NCBI RefSeq assembly: GCF_026420845.1
Contig: NZ_JAOWCB010000006.1
Location: 124,001 to 188,000 of the forward strand
Length of the DNA stretch: 64,000 nucleotides
Origin: Streptomyces sp. PR69
GTDB lineage: Bacteria; Actinomycetota; Actinomycetes; Streptomycetales; Streptomycetaceae
Reading direction: 5' to 3'
Shown here: positions 33,571 to 59,801 of the stretch, piece by piece
Position numbering within the stretch: position 1 is the first letter of the stretch
Layout of the letters: each line of letters begins with the position of its first letter
Position numbers and translations under genes: made by a program
The notes under the pieces: model-generated
Databases searched by the model: none
What the model saw: only the letters and a program-made list of their open reading frames with translations
Told to the model about the DNA's origin: nothing

Positions 33571-33598
33571 CGTCGACCAGTTGCCTGGTCAGGCGCAG

Positions 33599-33672
33599 AG
33601 CCCCCTGTCGGGTTCGAACCGACGACCCCCGCTTTACAAGAGCGGTGCTCTGGCCAGCTGAGCTAAGGAGGC
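33599..33672 (-). tRNA. tRNA-Thr (anticodon TGT)
   Basis: A 74-base cloverleaf reads from GCCTCCT to AGGGGGC plus a T discriminator on the minus strand. The D arm is AGCTCAGCTGGCCAGAGCA, the anticodon loop CTTGTAA gives UGU (33636-33638), and the T arm contains GGTTCGAACC. CCA is not encoded. UGU reads ACA/ACG threonine codons, which are rare-type codons in this GC-rich genome. Confidence 0.97.
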
Positions 33673-50019: not shown

Positions 50020-50781
50020 TTACTTCTTCTTGCCCTGGTTCTTGACGGCCTCGATGGCCGCGGCCGCCGCCTCGGGGTCGAGGTAGGCGCCGCCGGGGGT
50101 GACCGGGTTGAAGTCGGGGTCGAGGTCGTAGACCAGCGGGATGCCCGTGGGGATGTTCAGGCCCGCGATGTCGGCGTCGGAGATGCCGTCCAGGTGCTTG
50201 ACCAGGGCGCGCAGGCTGTTGCCGTGGGCGGCGACCAGGACCGTGCGGCCGGTGAGGAGGTCGGGGACGATGCCGTCGTACCAGTACGGCAGCATGCGCG
50301 TCACGACGTCCTTGAGGCACTCCGTGCGCGGGCGCAGCTCGCTCGGGATGGTGGCGTAGCGGGGGTCGTGGGCCTGGGAGAACTCGCTGTCGTCGGCGAG
50401 CGGCGGCGGCGGGGTGTCGTATGAGCGGCGCCAGAGCATGAACTGCTCCTCGCCGAACTCGGCCAGGGTCTGCGCCTTGTCCTTGCCCTGCAGCGCGCCG
50501 TAGTGGCGCTCGTTCAGCCGCCAGGTGCGGTGGACGGGGATCCAGTGGCGGTCGGCGGCCTCCAGGGCGAGCTGCGCGGTGCGGATGGCGCGCTTCTGGA
50601 GGGAGGTGTGCAGTACGTCGGGGAGCAGGCCGGCGTCCTTGAGCAGCTCACCGCCGCGGACTGCCTCCTTCTCGCCCTTCTCGGTGAGGTTGACGTCCAC
50701 CCAGCCGGTGAACAGGTTCTTCGCGTTCCATTCGCTCTCGCCGTGGCGGAGGAGGATCAGCTTGTACGGTGCGTCGGCCAT
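50020..50781 (-). CDS. gpmA: 2,3-bisphosphoglycerate-dependent phosphoglycerate mutase
   Basis: This 253-residue glycolytic enzyme interconverts 3- and 2-phosphoglycerate. The phospho-His is in [10 protein letters not shown] (His13), [20 protein letters not shown] is the substrate loop, and [17 protein letters not shown] carries the second His. The C-terminus is Lys-rich (NQGKKK). The ATG 50781 has no ribosome site; TAGTCT seven bases upstream suits leaderless expression. Its 3' end forms one copy of a 24-bp direct repeat. Confidence 0.96.
50021..50044. repeat. Proximal copy of the 24-bp direct repeat in the gpmA 3' end (att-like)
   Basis: It covers the last codons and stop region of gpmA and differs from 48721-48744 at one position. 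A gene 3' end that stays intact after insertion is the usual attB design of integrative elements. Confidence 0.75.
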
Positions 50782-50937
50782 GCGTACGAGACTAATCGAC
50801 GCGCCGACGCTTGACGGCCCCCGTCAATTCGGTGGCGACGCCCCCCGCACGGCCCGTAACTTCCAGGTGTCCGCGGGGCCGCTTACGTGCACACCCCGCG
50901 TCCGCCATTTCGCATGCCAAGCGCCGGGGGAGTCCGC

Positions 50938-52254
50938 TTGTCCATCCCGTTCGTCGTCCCGCTCATACGCTCGGCTCGCAGCACGGTGTCCGGGCTTCCC
51001 GGCGGCTTCTGGTGGCTGTGGCTGTCGACCCTGGTGAACCGTACGGGCGCGTTCGTCCTGACCTTCCTGTCCCTCTTCCTCACCCAGGAGCTGGGGTTCT
51101 CCGGCTGGTACGCGGGGCTGGTCATCGCCCTGCACGGACTCGGCGGCATCGCCGGGGCGCCGCTGGGCGGAGTGCTCAGCGACCGGTGGGGGCGGCGGCC
51201 CACGATGGTGGCGGGTCAGCTCGGCGGGGCGGTCGGCGCGCTGGCCCTGGCGGTGGTGACCAGCCCCTGGGCAATCGCGGCGGTAGTGCTGCTGATGGGC
51301 GTCGCCATGCAGGCGGTACGGCCCGCGATCAGCGCGACCATCGCGGACCAGGTTCCGGAGCCGGACCGGCGACGCGCGTACGCGCTGAACTACTGGGCGC
51401 TGAACCTGGGCTTCGCCATCGCGGCGACGGGCGGCGGCGCGGCGCTGGTCCTCGGTTACCGGACGCTTTTCGTGGTGGAGGCGTGCGCGGTGGTGCTGTG
51501 CGCGCTGATCGTGTTCCTGAAGCTGCCGGAGACGCGGCCGGAGGCGGGTCAGGGCGAGGACGGCGAGCCGGACCCGGAGGCCGAGGCCCAGCAGAAGCTG
51601 TCGACCCTGGACATCCTCCGGGACGGCCCGTTCCGCACGCTCGTGCTGCTGAGCCTGCTGGTGTGCACGCTGTTCATCACGCCGTGGGTGGGCCTGCCGC
51701 TGACGATGACGGGCGCGGGCCTGCCCCCGGATTCGTACGGCCCGGTCATCGCCGTCAACGGCGTAGTGATCGTCGCCCTCCAGCTGCTGGTCAACAAGGT
51801 GACCGAGCGGCGGAAGCCGGTGACGCTGCTGGTGGTGTCGTCGCTGCTGTTCGCGGTGGGGCTGGGCGCGACGGCGCTGGCGGGGACGCCGGTGATGTTC
51901 GCGGCGACGGTGGTGGTGTGGACGCTGGGCGAGATGGTGTTCGTCCCGGTCAACGCGGCGGCGACCGCCCGGCTGGCCCCGGTCCACGCCCGGGGCCGCT
52001 ACCAGGGCGTGATGGGCATGGCCTGGTCGGTGGGCGGCTTCGTCGCCCCCATCTCGGCCGGCTGGATCGTCGAGGGCCCCGGCCCGGCGGTCCTGTGGCT
52101 CTCCTGCGCGGCCATCGGCGCGGCAGCGGCGGCGGGCTACGGCCTGCTGCTGCGCCGCGCGCTGTCGGAGGACGCGCCACGGGAGGCGGAGCCGGTGGCC
52201 CCGAAGTCCCCGCGGCCGTCGGCCGGTGAGACCCGCGAGAAGCAGCCCTCTTAG
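50938..52254 (+). CDS. MFS transporter (exporter type)
   Basis: This 438-residue protein has 12 predicted membrane helices (for example GGFWWLWLSTLVNRTGAFVL, AIAAVVLLMGVAMQAVRPAI) and the MFS loop motif GVLSDRWGRRP between helices 2 and 3. A second half begins at TLDILRDGPFRTLVLLSLLV. The substrate is unknown; a drug or metabolite exporter is likely. I prefer TTG 50938 because GGGGGAG lies six bases upstream; ATG 50914 and GTG 50887 are in frame. It is divergent from gpmA. Confidence 0.88.
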   Translation: MSIPFVVPLIRSARSTVSGLPGGFWWLWLSTLVNRTGAFVLTFLSLFLTQELGFSGWYAGLVIALHGLGGIAGAPLGGVLSDRWGRRPTMVAGQLGGAVGALALAVVTSPWAIAAVVLLMGVAMQAVRPAISATIADQVPEPDRRRAYALNYWALNLGFAIAATGGGAALVLGYRTLFVVEACAVVLCALIVFLKLPETRPEAGQGEDGEPDPEAEAQQKLSTLDILRDGPFRTLVLLSLLVCTLFITPWVGLPLTMTGAGLPPDSYGPVIAVNGVVIVALQLLVNKVTERRKPVTLLVVSSLLFAVGLGATALAGTPVMFAATVVVWTLGEMVFVPVNAAATARLAPVHARGRYQGVMGMAWSVGGFVAPISAGWIVEGPGPAVLWLSCAAIGAAAAAGYGLLLRRALSEDAPREAEPVAPKSPRPSAGETREKQPS

Positions 52255-52408
52255 CAAGGACGGGGCATCGGCCTCGTACGGACCGGACCGGGGCGTGCGG
52301 ACACGGGGGGGGGGCCGTACGCCCCGGTCACTCCCCTGCATCCGGCCGCTCTGCCAGAGCGCGCAGGCGGCCTGCGGCCCTGTGCTTGGGCGGGCGGGTG
52401 AGGGCAGC

Positions 52409-52636
52409 CTACGCGGGCACGGGATCGACCGTGATCGCCGAAGACGTGGTGTGCACATGGGCGTTCGTCACCACTTCGGAGGTGCAGAGCTCGGCCCGGT
52501 CGAGGAGCTGCGAGCACCCGCCGACGTGGAGGAGATCGACCACCCAGTGGCGTGCGAGACCGACCGTGCTCGGCAGGTTCGGGCCGGAGAACCGGTAGTT
52601 CGCGCCCGGCTGGGGCGGTGGTGCGGGAGGTGACAT
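52409..52636 (-). pseudogene. Truncated RsbW-type ATP-binding protein
   Basis: The frame reads NYRFSGPNLPSTVGLARHWV, LLHVGGCSQLLDRAELCTSE and VVTNAHVHTTSSAITV, then stops. This is the N-terminal half of the small anti-sigma-like HATPase proteins common in Streptomyces, with the N box (SEVVTNAHVHT) present. The G boxes that complete the ATP site are missing and no continuation is visible downstream. These ATPases typically sit beside XRE/DUF397 gene pairs, as here (divergent, 98 bp apart). Confidence 0.7.
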
Positions 52637-52638
52637 GT

Positions 52639-52658
52639 ATGCCCCGTGGCAAGATTGG
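52639..52658 (+). promoter_or_regulatory. Shared operator-like motif, copy 1 (before the XRE gene)
   Basis: ATGCCCCGTGGCA, three bases, TTG matches the copy at 53866-53884 at every position except one purine and the spacer. It lies 77 bp before the regulator start and abuts the divergent ATPase-like gene. I infer a binding site of the XRE regulator overlapping a -35. Confidence 0.65.
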
Positions 52659-52734
52659 CGCTCAGCGTTAACCACATTGGGTGGACCGTGGCACGGTTAC
52701 GCGCGACACTGTGCGCAGACAGGGGAAGGGACTC

Positions 52735-53589
52735 ATGCCGCCGAGGGACAACCCGACAGCCCGCCAGGCCCGGCTTGGCGCCGAGCTCCGCAAGCTGCGC
52801 GAACGCGCGGGGAAGACCGCCCGAGAGGCGGCAGGGATGGTCTCGACCGACCAAGCCAAGATCAGCCACATCGAGGCCGGCCGGATCGGGGTCAGCGAGG
52901 AACGCATCCGCAAGCTCGCCGTCTACTACGCCTGCGACGACGAGGCCCTCGTCGAGGCCCTGTGCGGCATCGCGCGCGAGCACAGAGGACAGCACTGGTG
53001 GGACAGCTACCGGGGTGTCCTCGCCCCAGGGTTCCTCGACATCGCCGAACTTGAGCACCACGCCATCCGGCTTCGATGCCTGCAACCGGTCACGTTCCCC
53101 GGCGTCCTCCAGACCGAGGACTACGCGCACGCCCTGTTCGCCAGTGTCATCCCGCAGCTCCCCGACGACGAAGTGCGGGCCCGTGTCGAGCACCGCATGA
53201 AGCGGCAGGCGATCCTGGAGCGCGAGACCGCTCCCCCTTTCGAGGCGATCGTGCACGAGGCAGCCCTGCGCATGCGCGTAGGCGGGCGAAAGGTCGCACG
53301 CAGCCAACTCGAACACCTCCTGTCCGTATCCGAGCGCCCCGGCCTGACCCTCCGGGTGATCCCGTTCACGAACGAGGACTTCATCGAGGTGACGCAGACC
53401 GTGATGTACGCGAACGGTGTCGTACCGCAACTAGACACCGTGCAGATCGACACCCCGTTCGGCGGTCGCTTCCTCGACGCAGCCGGGGAACTCGACCGCT
53501 ATCGCACGCTCTTCGACTTCGCCGAGCAGGCAGCGCTGGATCCCGAAGAGTCGCGAAGCTTCATTCATCACGTCGCAAGGGAACTGTGA
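52735..53589 (+). CDS. XRE regulator with DUF5753 (Scr1 type)
   Basis: This 284-residue protein has an N-terminal HTH (ARLGAELRKLRERAGKTARE then AAGMVSTDQAKISHIEAGRI, about 10-50) and a DUF5753 ligand-like domain (FPGVLQTEDYAHALF, RVEHRMKRQAILER, LTLRVIPFTNEDFIE). Many such pairs with DUF397 proteins occur in Streptomyces and act as antitoxin-like or developmental regulators. ATG 52735 follows AGGGGAAGGG. It overlaps or nearly abuts a DUF397 gene. Confidence 0.93.
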   Translation: MPPRDNPTARQARLGAELRKLRERAGKTAREAAGMVSTDQAKISHIEAGRIGVSEERIRKLAVYYACDDEALVEALCGIAREHRGQHWWDSYRGVLAPGFLDIAELEHHAIRLRCLQPVTFPGVLQTEDYAHALFASVIPQLPDDEVRARVEHRMKRQAILERETAPPFEAIVHEAALRMRVGGRKVARSQLEHLLSVSERPGLTLRVIPFTNEDFIEVTQTVMYANGVVPQLDTVQIDTPFGGRFLDAAGELDRYRTLFDFAEQAALDPEESRSFIHHVAREL

Positions 53590-53597
53590 GAGTCAGA

Positions 53598-53795
53598 ATG
53601 AGTGAAATCAATTGGCAGAAGTCGAGCTACTCCGGCGGCGGCGGTGAGCAGTGCCTCGAAACAGCCAAGGTCGCCGGTGGAATCCTCCTGCGCGAGAGTG
53701 ACGACCCCGGTGTCATCGTGAAGACCACGCCAGAGAACCTCGCCGCCTTCATCCTCGGCGTGAAGAACGGCGAATTCGACCACCTCATCGGCTAG
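53598..53795 (+). CDS. DUF397 protein
   Basis: This 65-residue protein has the family pattern INWQKSSYSGGGGEQCLETA followed by GILLRESDDPGVIV and AAFILGVKNGEF. DUF397 proteins pair with DUF5753 regulators and bind or modulate them. The GTG at 53586 overlapping the regulator's stop codon is an alternative start adding four residues. A terminator follows. Confidence 0.92.
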   Translation: MSEINWQKSSYSGGGGEQCLETAKVAGGILLRESDDPGVIVKTTPENLAAFILGVKNGEFDHLIG

Positions 53796-53812
53796 AGCCG
53801 ACAAGGCACAAC

Positions 53813-53844
53813 AGTGCCCCTCGTCCAACCGGGCGGGGGGCACT
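53813..53844 (+). terminator. Terminator after the XRE/DUF397 pair
   Basis: AGTGCCCC (53813-53820) pairs with GGGGCACT (53837-53844), 18 bp after the DUF397 stop. Confidence 0.8.
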
Positions 53845-53865
53845 CGCATATGCCGATCCGCATAC

Positions 53866-53911
53866 ATGCCCCGTAGCACACTTGTCACCTCGCCTGACGT
53901 AGCGCTACCGT
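53866..53911 (+). promoter_or_regulatory. Shared motif copy 2 and promoter of the five-gene operon
   Basis: ATGCCCCGTAGCA, three bases, TTG (53866-53884) repeats the motif found before the XRE gene. It overlaps a -35-like TTGTCA (53882-53887), followed 18 bases later by a -10-like TACCGT (53906-53911). The first small ORF starts 173 bp downstream. Confidence 0.65.
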
Positions 53912-54083
53912 CGCTGTGCGTCGCGGGCGAGGGCCGATCCTTGGCGGGATCGCGCCCACATCCGCGCAAGTCCTCCCATGCACAAGTCCCGTTGGAAAGG
54001 ACTCCCCGAGAGCCGCCCCTGACCACGCGTGCCTCTAGCGCGCCCCACGGGGCGACCATGCCACTGGGACAGGAGGGTCAGCC

Positions 54084-54257
54084 GTGCGCGCCATCCGGGT
54101 ACAGGTTCGCACCGCGCACGCGGCAGGAATGACACCCTGCGAGACGGAGCGCGCGGCCGAGTGTGCGGTTACGCCCGTGCACCATCTCGAACTTGGCGTG
54201 CGCACCTCCCATCACTACACCCAACACGTCTCTTTTCGACCGGAATTGAGCCCATGA
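54084..54257 (+). CDS. Small protein leading the glycosylase/radical-SAM operon
   Basis: This 57-residue frame (MRAIRVQVRTAHAAGMTPCE, then TERAAECAVTPVHHLELGVR) starts at GTG 54084 behind a near-perfect ribosome site AGGAGGG and ends with its stop overlapping the next gene's ATG (ATGA, 54254-54257). This coupling is the same as in the rest of the operon, which argues that it is translated. It contains two Cys and several His. No family is recognised; it could also be a leader that couples translation. Confidence 0.7.
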   Translation: MRAIRVQVRTAHAAGMTPCETERAAECAVTPVHHLELGVRTSHHYTQHVSFRPELSP

Positions 54258-55093
54258 GCGCGAAGATCATTACGGAACACCCCGCATGGCGCACGACCCC
54301 CAAGGGGGAGCAGGCCCGCCTCGTCGAGCACGAGGGCGCCGCGTGGCTCGCCATCTGGAACCACCGGAGCGAGCATCTCGCACTACAAGCCATCACGGGT
54401 GACCCTGCCGCCGAGCAGCCGCCCGTCGCCTACACGTCACCGATCGACCTGCCCACCACTCCCGAGCAAGCCGTGCCGCTGCTCGACGAGTTGGTGCGCT
54501 TGGGCACCGTGGCACGTCTCACCAACCCCTCGTTGTGGGACGCGATCGTTACGGCGATCCTCCGCCAGGTCGTGAGTGCGAAGCAGGCTCGACGACGCCA
54601 CCAGTCGTTCTACGCCGCGTACGGGCGCAACTTCACTACGGCGACCGGCGAGTTCGCGCTCGTGCCGACTCCTGAGACGGTGCTCGCCCTCCCTGACGAC
54701 GGATTCGCCGCCGTCGGAACGAAGTTCAACCGCACCGCGCTGCTTGCTGCTGCCGAGGCGTACCTCGACCGCGGCGAGCAGTGGGTCACCCTCGACCCCG
54801 AAAGCCTGATCAAAGAACTTGTCGAGGTGCCCCGCATCGGTCCGTGGACCGCCGCCGCAGCCGCGGCTGACTTCACAGGCGACTTTTCGATCTACCCGCA
54901 CGGCGACCTCGCTGTGCGCACATGGGCCCGGAAGGCGGCCCCCATCCTCGAACTCCCCAGTTCCGACTTCGAGTTCGAGGCCATGTGGCGCCGATGGGCG
55001 CCCGATCGCACCCAACTGCACGCCCTGACCCTTTTCACTCTCACGTGGGGGAGCAATGACCTTAACGACCACGGAGGACGGCACCGCCTCTGA
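54254..55093 (+). CDS. HhH-GPD DNA glycosylase-like protein
   Basis: This 279-residue protein resembles AlkA-type base-excision glycosylases: AIVTAILRQVVSAKQARRRH, then LPDDGFAAVGTKFNRTALLA, the helix-hairpin-helix ELVEVPRIGPWTAAAAAADF, and the catalytic-type Asp in YPHGDLAVRTWARKA. It lacks the C-terminal iron-sulfur cluster of Nth/MutY. It may remove a modified base, or, given its neighbours, act on one made locally. It overlaps the radical SAM gene by 38 bases. Confidence 0.85.
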   Translation: MSAKIITEHPAWRTTPKGEQARLVEHEGAAWLAIWNHRSEHLALQAITGDPAAEQPPVAYTSPIDLPTTPEQAVPLLDELVRLGTVARLTNPSLWDAIVTAILRQVVSAKQARRRHQSFYAAYGRNFTTATGEFALVPTPETVLALPDDGFAAVGTKFNRTALLAAAEAYLDRGEQWVTLDPESLIKELVEVPRIGPWTAAAAAADFTGDFSIYPHGDLAVRTWARKAAPILELPSSDFEFEAMWRRWAPDRTQLHALTLFTLTWGSNDLNDHGGRHRL

Positions 55094-56546
55094 CCTGATC
55101 GCCGGTGCCGACCCGCTCCGCGTCCTCGACGCCCTGTTCGTGAACGCGCCACTCCGTGACTACGCCCTGCGGCCCCGGACGAACGACTACACCCTGCCGG
55201 TCCTCGGGATGGCGTACATCGCGACGTACGCGCAGCAGGCCGGTTTCCACGTGGGCGTGCTGGACGCCGAGGCGCACGGGCTCGGCATCGACGAGACCAC
55301 CCACCTGATCAACACCGTCCGGCCTCGATGGGTGGGGATGAACCTGCTCGCCCCCACGTACGAGATGTCGGCCCGGATCGCCGCCGACCTCGACCCCGAG
55401 ATCGCACTCATGGTCGGGGGCCACCACGCCCGCGCGATGCCCGACCGCATCCTCGGCGACCCGCGCATGGGCAACCTACGCGCCCTGGTGATCGGCGAGG
55501 GCGAGACGCGCGTCGCCGCACTGCTCGCCGACGAGCGCCGCCGCGCCGAGCTGCCCGGGGTGATGTGGCGCGACCGGCTGCTCGGCACCCACGCCGCCGG
55601 AATCGCGCGCGACAAGGCCGACTGGCTCAGCCCGGACATAGACGCCCTGCCGCTCGTGAACCGCGAGTTCCTGCCGCAAGACCCGTACGGCGCCGACGAC
55701 GGCCGGACCGAGGCGAACATCGTCGGCTCGCGCGGGTGCCCGTACGACTGCGGGTTCTGTGGCGCCGCCGTCTCGGCGAACCCCGACGTCAAGATCCGGC
55801 CCCGCTCGCCCGAGGGCATCGTCGACGAGCTCGACCACCTGCACGAGACCCACGGGACGACCGCGTACCGATTCGTCGACGACCTCTTTCTCGGCGCAAA
55901 ACGGGTGATCGTCCCGCAGATGGAGGCGTTCTCCCGGCACAAGATCGGCGACCGGTACGTGTGGGACGCCACCGGGAGGATCAACGTGTTCGACCGCCTC
56001 GACGACGCCATGCTCGACACGCTCAAGGCGAACGGGCTGCGCGAGGTCGCCCTCGGTATCGAGTCGGGTAGCGATCGCGTGCTTGCCGGGATGGACAAGC
56101 GGATCACGGCCGAGATGACCGCGCAGGTCGCTGCTCGCCTGCTCGCGCGCGGCATCGGCGTGAAGGGCTATTTCATCCTCGGCTACCCCGGGGAGAAGCA
56201 GGAAGACCTCGACGCGACCGTGCGCCACATCCACAACCTGTGGGCCATCGCGGACCGGCATGCCTCCGGCCGGTTCCGGGCGAGCGTGTTCGAGTTCCGG
56301 CCCTACCCCGGCACGCCGATCTGGAAGACGCTCACCGACGCCGGGTACGAGCCCGACACCCTGCTCGCGTACTCCGACGTCGACCTGACCGCGGACGGCG
56401 CCGACGAGTCCATGCGGCAGCGCGACGAGTTCAATTTCTCGGTCGGCGTCCAGTTCGGCACTGTCCCTCTCCCCAAGCTGCGCGCGACGCTCGCTGAGCT
56501 CACCCGCGAACAGCACGACCGCAACCGTCCGGGAGTCGCCGCGTGA
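55056..56546 (+). CDS. Cobalamin-binding-domain radical SAM enzyme
   Basis: This 496-residue enzyme has an N-terminal B12-binding-like domain (about 20-165, with LPVLGMAYIATYAQQAGFHV, GMNLLAPTYEMS, IALMVGGHHARAM) and the radical SAM CxxxCxxC motif in GCPYDCGFCGA near residue 235. The Elp3-like barrel follows (YRFVDDLFLGAKR, EVALGIESGSDRVLAGMDKR, GYFILGYPGEKQEDLDATV). Members methylate or rearrange unactivated carbons; OxsB, which acts on a nucleotide, is one precedent. The substrate is unknown. It is coupled on both sides within the operon. Confidence 0.92.
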   Translation: MTLTTTEDGTASDLIAGADPLRVLDALFVNAPLRDYALRPRTNDYTLPVLGMAYIATYAQQAGFHVGVLDAEAHGLGIDETTHLINTVRPRWVGMNLLAPTYEMSARIAADLDPEIALMVGGHHARAMPDRILGDPRMGNLRALVIGEGETRVAALLADERRRAELPGVMWRDRLLGTHAAGIARDKADWLSPDIDALPLVNREFLPQDPYGADDGRTEANIVGSRGCPYDCGFCGAAVSANPDVKIRPRSPEGIVDELDHLHETHGTTAYRFVDDLFLGAKRVIVPQMEAFSRHKIGDRYVWDATGRINVFDRLDDAMLDTLKANGLREVALGIESGSDRVLAGMDKRITAEMTAQVAARLLARGIGVKGYFILGYPGEKQEDLDATVRHIHNLWAIADRHASGRFRASVFEFRPYPGTPIWKTLTDAGYEPDTLLAYSDVDLTADGADESMRQRDEFNFSVGVQFGTVPLPKLRATLAELTREQHDRNRPGVAA

Positions 56547-57199
56547 ACTCACACCCCGGCGTGTTCGTCACGATCGACGGCCCGGGCGCGGTCGGCAAGT
56601 CCACCACGGTCGCCGAGCTCGGACGTCTGCTCGCCAGCCGCGGAAGCGGCGTCCACACGACGGCCGAGCCCTCGTCCAGCGAACTCGGCGAGTTCACCCG
56701 GTCCAAGGCGGACCACATCCGCGGACGCGCACTCGCCTGTCTCGTCGCGGCGAACCGGTATGAACACATCGAAGTCGAGCTCGACCCGGTACTCAAGGCC
56801 GGCTATACCGTCGTCTGCGACCGCTACCTCGCGTCGAGTCTCGTTCTCCAACAGCTCGACGGCGTGCCCGAGCCCTTCGTGCTCGCCCTGAACCGGCACG
56901 TCCTGCTGCCCGACCTGGCCGTGATCCTCACCGCACAACCGGAGACCATCGCGGCCCGCCTCGCCGAACGTGGAAAGCGCCACCGCTTCCACGACGCCCC
57001 GACCGGACCGGCCCGAGAGGTCGAGCTCTACCGCGATGCTGCACAGACCTTGATGATTCTCGGCGTCGAGGTGCTCGTGCTCGACTCGACCGACGCCACC
57101 CCTACGGATGTAGCGAAGCGAATCGCCGACGCCCTGTCCCCTCCCGGGGGTAGCGTCGTCAACCACAGCAAGCACGACGATCCCACGGTGAACTCATGA
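56543..57199 (+). CDS. Thymidylate-kinase-like P-loop kinase
   Basis: This 218-residue protein has Walker A TIDGPGAVGKSTTVAEL (near 11-26), the dTMP-kinase DRY motif CDRYLASSLVLQQLDG, VILTAQPETIAARLAERGKR and a LID-like HRFHDAPTGPAREVE. The P-loop differs from housekeeping Tmk (usually GxxGxGKT), so it is a paralog, perhaps for a modified nucleotide. GTG start overlaps the radical SAM stop by four bases; its own stop overlaps the NUDIX gene. Confidence 0.87.
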   Translation: MNSHPGVFVTIDGPGAVGKSTTVAELGRLLASRGSGVHTTAEPSSSELGEFTRSKADHIRGRALACLVAANRYEHIEVELDPVLKAGYTVVCDRYLASSLVLQQLDGVPEPFVLALNRHVLLPDLAVILTAQPETIAARLAERGKRHRFHDAPTGPAREVELYRDAAQTLMILGVEVLVLDSTDATPTDVAKRIADALSPPGGSVVNHSKHDDPTVNS

Positions 57200-57639
57200 A
57201 CGCAGCACCCGCGGCCCCCGTGATCGACACGCATGTGATCCTGCGCGACGGCGACAAGATCCTGCTGTCACAGCGCGGGGGCCCCTACGGCTACGGCCGG
57301 TGGCACGCCCCCTCGGGCAAGCTCGACGCCGGCGAGCCGCTCACCATCGGCGCCGCACGCGAGCTGCGGGAAGAGACCGGCGTCGAGGTCGACCCCGAGC
57401 GCCTGCGGCTTGTGCACGTCGTGCACCACAAGCAGAGTCCCGAGGTTGCGCGAATCGGCCTGTTCTTCCTGGCCACGACGTGGCAGGGCGAGCCGGTCAA
57501 CCGCGAGCCCGAGAAGTGTCTCGACCTGCGGTGGTGGTCCGTGCACGAGCTGCCCGAGGACATCATCGAGTACCCCGCCGCCGGACTGCTCGGCTACCTC
57601 GACGGCGGCGAGCCGCTCACCGAACACGGTTGGTCGTAA
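57196..57639 (+). CDS. NUDIX hydrolase
   Basis: This 147-residue MutT-like hydrolase has a complete NUDIX box, GKLDAGEPLTIGAARELREE followed by TGV, and the WHAPSGKLDAGE substrate region. NUDIX enzymes cleave nucleoside diphosphate-X compounds. It is the last gene of the operon (ATGA overlap with the kinase gene), followed by a strong terminator. It may remove a toxic or modified nucleotide made by the pathway. Confidence 0.93.
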   Translation: MNAAPAAPVIDTHVILRDGDKILLSQRGGPYGYGRWHAPSGKLDAGEPLTIGAARELREETGVEVDPERLRLVHVVHHKQSPEVARIGLFFLATTWQGEPVNREPEKCLDLRWWSVHELPEDIIEYPAAGLLGYLDGGEPLTEHGWS

Positions 57640-57660
57640 GGCACGGCCAACAGGCAGCCG

Positions 57661-57698
57661 CCGCCCCCGCCACGGGCTGCTCCTCGTGGCGGGGGCGG
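57661..57698 (+). terminator. Terminator of the five-gene operon
   Basis: Perfect 14-bp arms (CCGCCCCCGCCACG at 57661-57674, complement at 57685-57698) with a 10-base loop, 22 bp after the NUDIX stop. Confidence 0.9.
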
Positions 57699-57757
57699 TC
57701 GGCGCTTCGACCTCGTACAGACCTGCCCGGGGCCGTCAGTCGGCGCCCGGCCCGGGC

Positions 57758-58315
57758 CTACTTCGACGGCTGGGTCAGATGGGCGAAGGCCTCAAGGTTG
57801 CGCGTGGATTCCCCGCGCGAGACCCGCCACTCGTACTCCCGCTTGATCGCACTGGCGAAGCCCAGCTCCAGCAGGGTGTTGAACGATCCGTCGGCCGCCT
57901 CCAGCACCGTGCCCAGCAGCCGGTCCAGCTCCTCGGGGGACACCACCGACAGCGGCAGTCTGCCGACGAGATAGATGTCGCCGAGCCGGTCAATCGCGTA
58001 ACTCAGCCCGTACAGCTTGAGGTTGCGCTCCAGCAGCCAGCGGTGCACCGCCGCGTCGTTCTCGTCGGGATGGCGGATGACGAAGGCATTGACGGAGAGC
58101 GAGTGGTTGCCGATGAGGAGGGAGCAGGTGGTGGACAGCTTGCGGGTGCCGGGGAGTTTGACGACGTACGAGCCCGGTTCCGGACGCTCCCATTCCAGGT
58201 CGGCGTCGTCGAGGGTCTGCTCGACGATCCGCGCGATGTCGTCGTTCCGTGCGCGTGAGTTCTGTGCGTTCGGGTTCCGTGCGTTCGGGTTCCGTGCGTC
58301 TGGTGCCTCAGCCAT
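57758..58315 (-). CDS. YbjN-domain protein
   Basis: This 185-residue protein has an N-terminal ARNPNARNPNA repeat encoded by a 15-bp tandem repeat, then a YbjN-type alpha/beta domain (IARIVEQTLDDADLEW, LLIGNHSLSVNAFVIRHPDE, RWLLERNLKLYGLSYAIDRL, VVSPEELDRLLGTVLEAAD). YbjN folds resemble secretion chaperones and affect regulation in enterobacteria. It lies 37 bp downstream of mshA on the same strand, a conserved actinobacterial pairing. Confidence 0.9.
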   Translation of the reverse strand: MAEAPDARNPNARNPNAQNSRARNDDIARIVEQTLDDADLEWERPEPGSYVVKLPGTRKLSTTCSLLIGNHSLSVNAFVIRHPDENDAAVHRWLLERNLKLYGLSYAIDRLGDIYLVGRLPLSVVSPEELDRLLGTVLEAADGSFNTLLELGFASAIKREYEWRVSRGESTRNLEAFAHLTQPSK

Positions 58316-58352
58316 GGGCTGAGCGTACGTCAGCGGCGCCCTCCCGGCGGGG

Positions 58353-59801
58353 TCAGACGTGGCGCAGCCGGTGGCGGCGGTGATGGTGGTGCCCGCCGCG
58401 CTGCCCGTGCCGCTGGGCGTGGTCGTACATCGCGGCCGTATAGACGTCCGCCGTCCTCGCCGCGGCCGTGTCCCAGCCGAAGGAGCGGGCGTGGCGGGCG
58501 GCCGCCTCGCCCATCCGGGCCAAGCGGTCCGGATCGGCCAGCAGGCCGGACAGCGCGTCCGCGTAGTCGGCCGGGTCGTGGCCGGGCACCAGCACGCCGG
58601 TCAGCCCGTCGCGGACGGCCACCGGCAGCCCGCCGACCTCGGCCGCCACCACCGGGGTGCCGCAGGCTTGCGCCTCGATCGCGACCAGGCCGAACGACTC
58701 GCTGTAGGAGGGCATCACCAGGACGGACGCGGCCCGGAACCAGTCGGCAAGCCGGTCCTGCCCCACCGGCGGCTGGAAGTGGACGAGGTCCGCGATGCCG
58801 AGCCGGGCGGCCAGCTTCTGCAGGCCCTCCGGCTTGGCGAGACCGCTGCCGCTCGGCCCGCCGACGACCGGCACGAAGAGACGGGAGCGCAGCGAGGGGT
58901 CGCGCTCCAGCAGCAGCGCGACCGCGTGCAGCAGGATGTCCGGGGCCTTCAGCGGCTGTATGCGGCCGGCGAAGAGCGGGATGAACGCGTCCTGCGGCAG
59001 GCCGAGGCGCACCCGTGCGGCCGCGCGCCCGTCGCGCCCAGCGCTCTCACTGAGCCCATCGCTCCCAGTGAGCCCACCGCTCCCGCTGAGCCCGTCGCGC
59101 CCGGCGGCCGGACGGAAGCGTTCCAGATTGACGCCGGGGTGGACGACGGCGACCTTGGCGGGATCGGCGTCATAGTGGCGCACCAGCTCGTCGGCCTCCT
59201 CCGCGGTGTTCGCGATCAGCCGGTCGGCCGCGCGCACGATCTGCGTCTCGCCGATCACCCGGGCCGCCGGCTCGGGGGTGTCGCCCTCGGCCAGCGAGGC
59301 GTTCTTGACCTTGGCCATGGTGTGCATGGCGTGCACAAGCGGCACGCCCCAGCGTTCGGCGGCCAGCCAGCCGACATGGCCGGAGAGCCAGTAGTGCGAG
59401 TGGACCAGGTCGTAGTGGCCGGGACGGTGGCCCGCCCACGCCTGCATCACGCCGTGGGTGAAGGCGCACAGCTGCGCGGGCAGCTCCTCCTTGGCCAGCC
59501 CCTCGTACGGGCCCGCGTCCACATGGCGTACGAGCACGCCCGGCGCGAGTTCCACGGCCGGCGGCAGCCCGCCCGCGGACGCGCGCGTGAATATCTCGAC
59601 CTCGACGCCGGCGGCGGCCAGCCGCTTGGCGAGCTCGACGATATAGACGTTCATGCCGCCCGCGTCGCCCGTGCCCGGCTGGTGCAGGGGCGAGGTGTGG
59701 ACGCTGAGCATGGCCACGCGGCGGGGCCGGCGGTGACCGGCGCCGAAGCGGAGGCGCGGGGCCGGGAGGCTGCCGCTGAGGCGGGACACGTACTGGCTCA
59801 C
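58353..59801 (-). CDS. mshA: D-inositol-3-phosphate glycosyltransferase MshA
   Basis: This 482-residue GT4 enzyme joins UDP-GlcNAc and inositol-3-phosphate, the first step of mycothiol synthesis. Motifs are [49 protein letters not shown] and the nucleotide-binding [21 protein letters not shown] 25-residue Ser/Gly repeat insert ([14 protein letters not shown]) sits near residue 250. The C-terminus is a His-rich tail ([14 protein letters not shown]). GTG 59801 is chosen because GAGGAGGA precedes it. Confidence 0.94.

What the first reader, a model, noticed from the sequence alone, without database searches (positions are those of the whole stretch)
52409..57698. Accessory cassette: XRE/DUF397 regulator pair plus an overlapping small ORF, glycosylase, B12 radical SAM, dTMP-kinase-like and NUDIX operon
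Five genes overlap by 4-38 bases with one promoter and one terminator, so they act together. The enzyme set (carbon-modifying radical SAM, nucleotide kinase paralog, NUDIX hydrolase, base glycosylase) suggests making, activating and removing a modified nucleotide or base. I know no described pathway or defence system with this set. It sits in an otherwise conserved core region (MFS to ybjN-mshA), which suggests acquisition.
Basis: partly seen in the sequence, partly recalled or inferred. Interest (0 to 1): 0.82.

Follow-up and report, generated by a model that had tools for sequence, protein, structure and literature searches.

The report
Phage-borne radical-SAM nucleotide-analogue operon
A small group of genes carried by viruses and plasmids of soil bacteria appears to make an altered DNA building block and to bring along the enzymes that clean it up, which looks like a new type of chemical weapon in bacterial conflicts, possibly against viruses.

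Summary
The four-gene operon is real: HhH DNA glycosylase, B12 radical SAM, TMPK-like kinase, NUDIX (54254-57639). It is mobile cargo: the same operon, with the same regulators in its closest copies, lies between lysis genes and integrase in IMG/VR prophages, beside the integrase of Streptomyces phage SF3, and on plasmids; the site is empty in 6 of 14 relatives' loci checked. The kinases form one clade apart from housekeeping TMPKs, with an active-site Tyr replaced in 75 of 75. Following this clade showed gene sets with the same slots but unrelated enzymes: B12 radical SAM + HhH glycosylase; divergent B12 radical SAM + AlkZ-like glycosylase; SPASM-class radical SAM + ExoIII-like nuclease; another radical SAM + DnaQ-like exonuclease. 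NUDIX and MazG-like genes alternate (41 and 7 of 50 type I rows, never both). Best reading: the radical SAM enzyme makes a modified deoxynucleotide, the kinase activates it, and the repair enzyme and pyrophosphohydrolase protect the carrier: viperin-like logic aimed at DNA. Product, toxicity and anti-phage role are inferred, not shown. PADLOC's candidate pair PDC-M51A/B weakly resembles the radical SAM and kinase. My searches found no paper describing the set.

The parts
52409..52675 (-). truncated remnant of an ATP-binding (anti-sigma-like) protein that is whole beside the cassette in prophage contig L077
   Evidence: tblastn 63% over 60 residues, E 2e-22; weak RsbA match 15.5 bits
52735..53589 (+). 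XRE-family regulator with DUF5753; travels with the closest cassette copies
   Evidence: PF19054 174.8 bits, HTH_31 58.9 bits; 51-84% identical genes upstream of the cassette in L031, L032, L033, L047, L060, L061, L077, L078
53598..53795 (+). DUF397 small protein
   Evidence: PF04149 53.1 bits
54084..54257 (+). remnant of a small ORF that is whole (140 aa) in L077 and L031; its last 4 bases overlap the glycosylase gene
   Evidence: tblastn 67% over 33 residues at 54069-54167, E 1e-8
54254..55093 (+). HhH-GPD DNA glycosylase, AlkA/OGG1 fold, catalytic Asp218, Trp rather than Lys at the lyase position (predicted monofunctional; the Lys rule is recalled)
   Evidence: PRK10308 32.6 bits, below cut-off; G196, W198, T199, A200 and D218 each in 41 of 41; model pLDDT 93.5; OGG1 Z 20.3, rmsd 3.3 over 258
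55056..56546 (+). cobalamin-binding radical SAM enzyme
   Evidence: B12-binding 53.4 bits, Radical_SAM 61.3 bits; the three Cys of CxxxCxxC invariant in the 30 rows of A4; fold AprD4 Z 26.6, MgmA 25.2, OxsB 24.8, TsrM 23.7
56543..57199 (+). divergent thymidylate-kinase-family kinase with Leu102 in place of Tyr
   Evidence: PF02223 90.3 bits; position 102 L/M/V in 75 of 75 family rows against Tyr in 28 of 28 canonical rows; canonical rows set apart with support 100/99
57196..57639 (+). NUDIX hydrolase, MutT/MTH1-like; a MazG-like gene takes this slot in some copies
   Evidence: PF00293 71.0 bits; Nudix hydrolase 1 and MTH1 among the closest solved relatives; MazG-like gene in the same slot
57657..57703 (+). 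strong hairpin after the operon, candidate terminator
   Evidence: -51.1 kcal/mol, z -4.9

Best explanation
This is a mobile operon, here a chromosomal remnant of prophage-type cargo, that makes a modified deoxynucleotide. Proposed steps: the B12 radical SAM enzyme alters a (deoxy)nucleotide (inferred); the dedicated TMPK-clade kinase, whose pocket differs from that of housekeeping TMPK, phosphorylates the product (inferred from the pocket and from its constant presence); the triphosphate enters DNA and harms replication, most likely that of an incoming phage or rival element (inferred); the DNA glycosylase excises the modified base from the carrier's DNA, and the NUDIX or MazG-like enzyme hydrolyses excess triphosphate (inferred from enzyme class and from replacement by enzymes of like function). 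It would work like viperin plus its kinase, but on DNA and with a built-in antidote. Shown: gene identities, overlaps, mobility, kinase clade, residue signature, slot replacement. Not shown: product, toxicity, phage protection.
For: (1) Slot logic: type I B12 rSAM + HhH glycosylase; type II divergent B12 rSAM + AlkZ-like glycosylase (PF06224, 100.5 bits) + MazG (34.7 bits) in L083; type III SPASM-class rSAM + ExoIII-like nuclease + MazG-like; type IV rSAM + DnaQ-like exonuclease, most with an aldo/keto reductase; one viral contig with a UDG-like gene. (2) In 392 genomes of the genus, 36 TMPK-clade matches in 35 genomes: 17 type I, 11 type III, 7 type IV, 1 unassigned. (3) Control: 0 of 27 canonical tmk loci carry a partner. 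(4) NUDIX in 41, MazG-like in 7, neither in 2, both in 0 of 50 type I rows. (5) Kinase: Tyr to Leu/Met/Val at 102 in 75 of 75; canonical rows set apart with 100/99. (6) Cargo position: lysis | cassette | xis-integrase in L077 and L078; SF3 gp35-38 beside integrase gp39; no cassette there in OnionKnight, whose integrase is 74% identical; plasmid pSP01, typed conjugative. (7) PADLOC candidate pair PDC-M51: M51A matches 21 of 30 rSAM members at E up to 0.1, best 1.4e-10; M51B matches the kinases at up to 46.2 bits. (8) OxsB, a fold relative (Z 24.8), acts on dAMP, dADP and dATP (PMC13331322, passages).
Against: No experiment. P0001 itself matches no PADLOC model. Canonical TMPKs were not scanned against PDC-M51B, so that match may be generic. 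The rSAM fold is as close to enzymes that do not act on nucleotides (AprD4, MgmA, TsrM). Of 150 neighbour proteins scanned (161 were picked), few match PADLOC models at 1e-10 (mad2 3, mad3 2, LmuB 1, AriA 1, PDC-S07 1); no baseline was measured. The window's copy and others are chromosomal. MazG-like calls in types I and III are below Pfam's MazG cut-off where scanned (L051 17.2, L076 15.7, L144 17.6 of 22 bits), though RefSeq names two such genes MazG-like. Type II has one full locus (L083), the UDG-type one (L148); G310 has type II rSAM-AlkZ-NUDIX with no TMPK match. In L132 the ExoIII-like gene lies on the opposite strand. No NUDIX or MazG match was found in type IV.
Confidence: 0.5

Rival explanations
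1. Phage/plasmid DNA hypermodification: the operon makes a modified base for the element's own DNA to escape host restriction, with the glycosylase-fold protein acting as a base-modifying transferase, as in thymidine hypermodification islands (recalled).
For: Kinase, radical SAM and a glycosylase-fold protein together on a phage, prophage contigs and plasmids.
Against: The glycosylase keeps the HhH residues and the catalytic Asp in 41 of 41, and its slot is refilled by AlkZ-like, ExoIII-like and DnaQ-like enzymes that remove or trim DNA. The cassette is accessory at the cargo site (SF3 against OnionKnight) and occurs on chromosomes and plasmids. No hydroxymethylase is among the operon's Pfam matches.
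Confidence: 0.17
2. Nucleoside antibiotic: the operon makes a secreted nucleoside analogue (oxetanocin-like) with a resistance glycosylase, used against competing bacteria.
For: OxsB among the closest folds; AlkZ of PDB 5uuj, known for self-resistance to a DNA-damaging antibiotic (recalled), is the only solved relative found for the type II glycosylase; an aldehyde-reduction step is reported for oxetanocin A (PMC13331322, passages), and type IV often carries an aldo/keto reductase.
Against: No transporter or phosphatase among the four genes; position as prophage cargo; no recurrent biosynthetic family among the 25 families shown in the neighbour tally (114 families matched in all).
Confidence: 0.15
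3. DNA-repair and pool-sanitising operon: all four enzymes deal with a damaged thymine-type nucleotide, and nothing toxic is made.
For: Glycosylase, NUDIX and MazG are house-cleaning classes.
Against: A dedicated kinase would load rather than clear a damaged nucleotide (inference). In five loci (L039, L061, L062, L207, L211) the rSAM is broken while the repair gene and the kinase remain; by the criterion used, no locus has a broken repair gene with an intact rSAM. The count is small, L207 and L211 also have a broken or unmatched reductase, G082 shows frame breaks in glycosylase, rSAM and kinase, and assembly errors are possible.
Confidence: 0.13
4. Unrelated genes brought together by chance on mobile elements.
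For: Streptomyces mobile elements are rich in NUDIX and regulator genes (recalled).
Against: Conserved order, mostly with a 4-base rSAM-TMPK overlap, across type I rSAMs 58-94% identical to P0001; 0 of 27 canonical loci with partners.
Confidence: 0.01

Closest known systems
Viperin (RSAD2 / prokaryotic pVip) with its nucleotide kinase
   Same: Radical SAM enzyme with a nucleotide kinase (pVip-kinase association as in the PADLOC model names); logic of an antiviral nucleotide analogue (recalled); the type III rSAM matches pVip 62.9 bits, and PDB viperins after SkfB and cytosylglucuronate decarboxylase
   Different: Types I and II use a cobalamin-binding rSAM; DNA-repair and pyrophosphohydrolase genes are part of the operon; type III scores 52.7 of 180 bits on the viperin family model
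PADLOC candidate PDC-M51 (A: radical SAM, B: kinase)
   Same: M51A matches 21 of 30 rSAM rows, M51B matches the kinases
   Different: Weak matches (up to 38.6 and 46.2 bits); read from the model names as a pair without glycosylase or hydrolase; 5 of the 6 genomes matching M51A at 1e-20 were scanned around the match and showed no TMPK-clade neighbour
OxsB/OxsA oxetanocin and AlsB albucidin pathways
   Same: Cobalamin rSAM acting on deoxynucleotides (passages); fold Z 24.8
   Different: No OxsA-like HD hydrolase among the four genes; a dedicated kinase and a DNA glycosylase instead
Thymidine hypermodification islands of phages (recalled)
   Same: Kinase, rSAM and glycosylase-fold protein together on phages
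   Different: Glycosylase catalytic residues kept; slot refilled by repair nucleases; accessory cargo

Membership tests
HhH-GPD DNA glycosylases | helix-hairpin-helix motif and catalytic Asp | tested here: met
   G196, W198, T199, A200 and D218 in 41 of 41 rows
HhH-GPD DNA glycosylases | AlkA/OGG1 fold | tested here: met
   OGG1 Z 20.3, rmsd 3.3 over 258 residues; Foldseek top AfAlkA 2jhn
HhH-GPD DNA glycosylases | match to a curated family model above cut-off | tested here: not met
   0 Pfam families; PRK10308 32.6 of 229 bits; so the family is assigned by motif and fold
Thymidylate kinase family | P-loop, DRY motif, LID Arg and family model | tested here: met
   PF02223 90.3 bits of 27; K19 73 of 75, R94 75 of 75, R148 74 of 75
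Housekeeping dTMP kinase | active-site Tyr at the position of residue 102 | tested here: not met
   L/M/V in 75 of 75 against Tyr in 28 of 28; canonical rows apart with 100/99
Cobalamin-dependent radical SAM enzymes | CxxxCxxC and B12-binding domain | tested here: met
   cobalamin binding itself is not testable here
Viperin | viperin family model above cut-off (type III rSAM) | tested here: not met
   52.7 of 180 bits
Viperin | viperin family model above cut-off (type I rSAM, P0001) | tested here: inconclusive
   not among the 25 of 28 families shown; no pVip match for P0001 in PADLOC
Viperin | makes a ddhCTP-type nucleotide | not testable with these tools
   needs biochemistry
PDC-M51 candidate system | M51A and M51B side by side | tested here: inconclusive
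   both match weakly in L083 (38.6 and 38.0 bits); P0001 has no M51A match; no score cut-offs are given
OxsB pathway | OxsA-like HD phosphohydrolase partner | tested here: not met
   no such domain in the operon proteins
OxsB pathway | acts on dAMP, dADP or dATP | not testable with these tools
   needs biochemistry
Thymidine hypermodification islands | hydroxymethyl-thymine pathway partners | tested here: inconclusive
   no such Pfam or PHROGs match among the operon proteins; I did not check that those models are in the libraries
Known PADLOC defence systems | parts of a validated system | tested here: not met
   only weak matches: PDC-M51B, VakA, PDC-S07 and helix-turn-helix models

The most novel reading that the evidence does not exclude
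A family of mobile conflict systems in which a radical SAM enzyme (of several distinct subfamilies) makes a DNA-directed nucleotide analogue, one dedicated clade of TMPK-like kinases activates it, and a matched DNA-repair enzyme (HhH or AlkZ-like glycosylase, ExoIII-like nuclease, DnaQ-like exonuclease, UDG-like) with a NUDIX or MazG-like hydrolase serves as antidote. The repair class would tell the lesion class: base change where a glycosylase is present, sugar or 3'-end block where a nuclease is present. That would be a DNA counterpart of viperin with built-in immunity.
Probability: 0.4. Interest if true: 0.95.

Novelty: new variant of a known kind. Interest (0 to 1): 0.83.

Why it matters
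If right, bacteria and their mobile elements use a set of unknown DNA-directed nucleotide analogues, each readable from the repair enzyme that travels with it. These would be new antiviral or antibacterial leads, new substrates for DNA glycosylases, and a handle for finding more such systems by following one kinase clade. It would also give a PADLOC candidate pair (PDC-M51) a clear biochemical prediction.

Tried and rejected
Rejected: a five-gene operon (only four overlap); a sigma-70 promoter (none found); an Rfam RNA such as a cobalamin riboswitch (0 matches at gathering threshold in 50500-58400); a housekeeping dTMP kinase (the genome has its own tmk); chance clustering. PDC-M51A searched in 149 phylum genomes gave 6 matching genomes at 74-114 bits; the five loci of these that I scanned (L186-L189, L217) showed no TMPK-clade neighbour, so that lead did not extend the family. 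Relatives of the UDG-type contig L148 were not found in viral contigs beyond itself; in phages its kinase's best hit was SF3. A direct-repeat check of the flanks gave only a 10-base match.

Literature: ten searches. Searches returned nothing; the others list titles and abstract starts, and only the first part of the papers found. None of the listed ones describes the set. The library lacks most subscription journals and bioRxiv-only work. Seen: PMC11514479, PMC12988326 and PMC13331322 in passages; PMC9415739 in the listing only.

Against my reading and kept: weak PADLOC scores, no baseline for defence neighbours, a chromosomal window copy, G310 without a TMPK match, MazG-like scores below Pfam's cut-off. 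In the intactness scan a gene counted as intact if one tblastn match covered 72% or more without a stop, which can miss frame breaks near an end. L089 was flagged there for its kinase only, but one search shows frame breaks in its glycosylase and rSAM too (same place, L004). L207's reductase passed although one search shows it in two frames. Four glycosylase rows flagged 'stop' (L041, L043, L086, L194) I read as natural shorter ends, because the first three end at 267 aa (L194 was not in that call). Dropped before counts: duplicate places (list in the script); identical TMPKs and those outside 170-300 aa (134 loci to 75 rows); 11 of 161 neighbour proteins. The 2 of 50 type I rows with neither hydrolase are L006, near a contig end, and L148, which I describe apart as UDG-type.
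Full report
OBSERVATION. The window lies in a Streptomyces-type genome (G000:C62; the closest named relatives are Streptomyces). Between an MFS gene and ybjN-mshA there are an XRE/DUF5753 gene and a DUF397 gene, then four open genes that overlap by 38, 4 and 4 bases: HhH glycosylase, B12 radical SAM, TMPK-like kinase, NUDIX. A hairpin of -51.1 kcal/mol follows. The small ORF before the glycosylase and the minus-strand ORF at 52409-52675 are remnants of genes that are whole in relatives. The cassette has 68.0% GC, the window 71.3%.

MOBILE CARGO. In two IMG/VR contigs (L077, L078) the order is tail - amidase - holin | ATP-binding gene - XRE - DUF397 - small ORF - glycosylase - rSAM - TMPK - NUDIX | excisionase-like - XRE - integrase (phage gene labels by my reading of the translations). 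Streptomyces phage SF3 carries the four genes as gp35-38 beside integrase gp39; it is the one phage with a match among 50,697 records, held as 2 records. Phage OnionKnight, with a 74% identical integrase and related genes on both sides (gp25, gp26, gp40 and gp42 at 25-48%), has no cassette there. Of 72,556 plasmid records, 13 have the rSAM at 60-90% identity, one of them over only 36% of its length; pSP01 is typed conjugative. In plasmid ITFR-21 a gene annotated MazG-like stands in place of NUDIX. At the window's site, 6 of 14 relatives' loci show MFS next to ybjN without the cassette; the other 8 had no MFS match within about 1.5 kb. In S. melanogenes the cassette lies in the same neighbourhood, on the other side of an MFS gene.

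CONSERVATION. Of 42 loci from genome contigs, 33 are close (57-93% identity) and 9 are distant radical SAM proteins. In the 33, the glycosylase is present in 31 (L059 is a contig edge, L063 degraded), a TMPK in 33 (broken in L063), NUDIX in 26, a MazG-like gene in 6, neither in 1, both in 0. In the non-redundant TMPK set, type I has 41 NUDIX, 7 MazG-like, 2 neither, 0 both. The MazG-like genes of L051, L076 and L144 score 15.7-17.6 bits against Pfam's cut-off of 22, that of L083 34.7.

THE KINASE CLADE. A profile of these TMPKs (A1) separates them from housekeeping TMPK. In 392 genomes of the genus it gives 36 matches of 174-341 bits in 35 genomes, while canonical matches listed for that genus lie at 94-97 bits. 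Of 75 distinct family TMPKs, 75 have Leu, Met or Val at position 102, where 28 of 28 canonical ones have Tyr. At position 68 the family has V/I in 68 and Y in 7, and the type IV sequences printed have Y there; the canonical set has Y/F in 26 and I in 2. From memory, the lost Tyr corresponds to the one near the sugar 2' position in M. tuberculosis TMPK; that is recalled, not tested. The tree puts the 28 canonical rows on one side of a branch with support 100/99; the partner types need 6 changes on it against a minimum of 5 and a shuffled mean of 46.5. Rows on long branches (L148, L103, L150, L011) are unsure, and L150 and L100 sit together, so some partner swapping is possible.

THE SLOTS. Type I: HhH glycosylase - B12 rSAM - TMPK - NUDIX or MazG-like. 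Type II (L083, genome G127): TMPK - divergent B12 rSAM - AlkZ-like glycosylase (PF06224, 100.5 bits) - MazG; G310 has rSAM - AlkZ-like (137.5 bits) - NUDIX with no TMPK match. Type III: SPASM-class rSAM (by below-cut-off NCBIfam matches) - TMPK - ExoIII-like nuclease (Exo_endo_phos 51.4 bits; closest solved: exodeoxyribonuclease III) - MazG-like, in 11 genus loci; also in 3 IMG/VR contigs (L150 without a MazG match) and in 2 other genomes without a MazG match (L131, cut by the contig end, and L132, whose nuclease gene is on the other strand). Type IV: rSAM with GCPLDCAYC (Pfam 19.8-21.4 bits, cut-off 29.5; weak PA0069-family match) - DnaQ-like exonuclease (74.9-76.8 bits) - aldo/keto reductase, with a match in 5 of 7 - TMPK, in 7 genus loci, the rSAM whole in 4. 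One low-GC viral contig (L148) has TMPK - B12-type rSAM - UDG-like gene (E 2.4e-7). None of 27 canonical tmk loci has any of these partners within about 1.5 kb; UDG was not among the queries. In the genus survey the 36 matches divide into 17 type I, 11 type III, 7 type IV and 1 with only TMPK and NUDIX (G074).

STRUCTURE. The rSAM model (pLDDT 84.7) is closest to AprD4 (Z 26.6, 3.7 A over 409), then MgmA (25.2) and OxsB (24.8), which are tied, and TsrM (23.7); Foldseek puts TsrM first. This fixes the class, not the substrate. The glycosylase model (pLDDT 93.5) matches OGG1 (Z 20.3, 3.3 A over 258) and AlkA-type enzymes.

MECHANISM. The constants are a radical SAM enzyme, one kinase clade and a DNA-repair or editing enzyme; in types I-III a pyrophosphohydrolase usually joins them. 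When the radical SAM class changes, the repair class changes too. The simplest account is a nucleotide analogue made by the rSAM, activated by the kinase, incorporated into DNA, and removed from the carrier's own DNA by the matched repair enzyme, with NUDIX or MazG-like enzymes draining the pool. Precedents: OxsB acts on dAMP, dADP and dATP on the way to an oxetane analogue (PMC13331322, passages); viperin makes an RNA chain terminator (recalled), and a viral proofreading exonuclease can remove its product (PMC9415739, title and abstract start in a listing). In five loci (L039, L061, L062, L207, L211) the rSAM is broken while the repair gene and the kinase remain (in L062 by an IS110-like ORF), and no scanned locus shows the reverse by the criterion used. 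In L207 and L211 the reductase is also broken or unmatched, and G082 has frame breaks in three genes. This is suggestive only.

ROLE. Prophage cargo without a transporter gene points to an intracellular role. PADLOC's candidate PDC-M51 (M51A matches 21 of 30 rSAM members; M51B matches the kinases) points to defence. 'PDC' stands for phage defence candidate, and most lack experimental validation (PMC11514479 and PMC12988326, passages). Against: P0001 itself has no PADLOC match, and few neighbours are known defence genes. I hold anti-phage or inter-element defence as most likely, ahead of self-DNA modification and of a secreted nucleoside.

NOVELTY. Ten literature searches listed no description of the set (see Tried and rejected for their limits). 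It is a variant of the known kind 'radical-SAM-made nucleotide analogue with a kinase'; the swapping repair antidotes and the DNA target would be new.

Noticed in passing
L148:1872-4464: Low-GC viral metagenome contig with a TMPK-clade kinase, B12-type rSAM and a UDG-like gene (E 2.4e-7 to PDB 4zbx); a possible fifth architecture, seen once.
   Followed up: partly
L062:7911-8990: An IS110-like transposase ORF (label by eye) splits the radical SAM gene of a Nocardiopsis copy while glycosylase, kinase and NUDIX stay whole.
   Followed up: partly
L084:162-770; L062:10980-11507; L150:9472-10017: A CYTH/triphosphate-tunnel-type gene lies on the opposite strand beside three cassettes; two of the three lack NUDIX and MazG matches, so it may be another triphosphatase for that slot.
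   Followed up: partly
L137:6095-11542: G310 has type II rSAM - AlkZ-like - NUDIX without a TMPK match, with a HAD-like gene, two more NUDIX-like genes and an ASCH-like gene around it (the neighbours' labels are by eye).
   Followed up: no
L203:1819-2118; L206:6868-7230: Two type IV loci carry a resolvase-N-terminal-like small gene near the kinase (30.0 and 26.3 bits), which may mark the mobile element.
   Followed up: no
L047:5881-13717: In S. melanogenes the cassette sits in the same MFS-ybjN-mshA neighbourhood but on the other side of MFS, suggesting an insertion hotspot.
   Followed up: partly
window 33598-33672: A tRNA-Thr gene on the minus strand is the only tRNA found in the window; it is about 19 kb from the cassette.
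   Followed up: no
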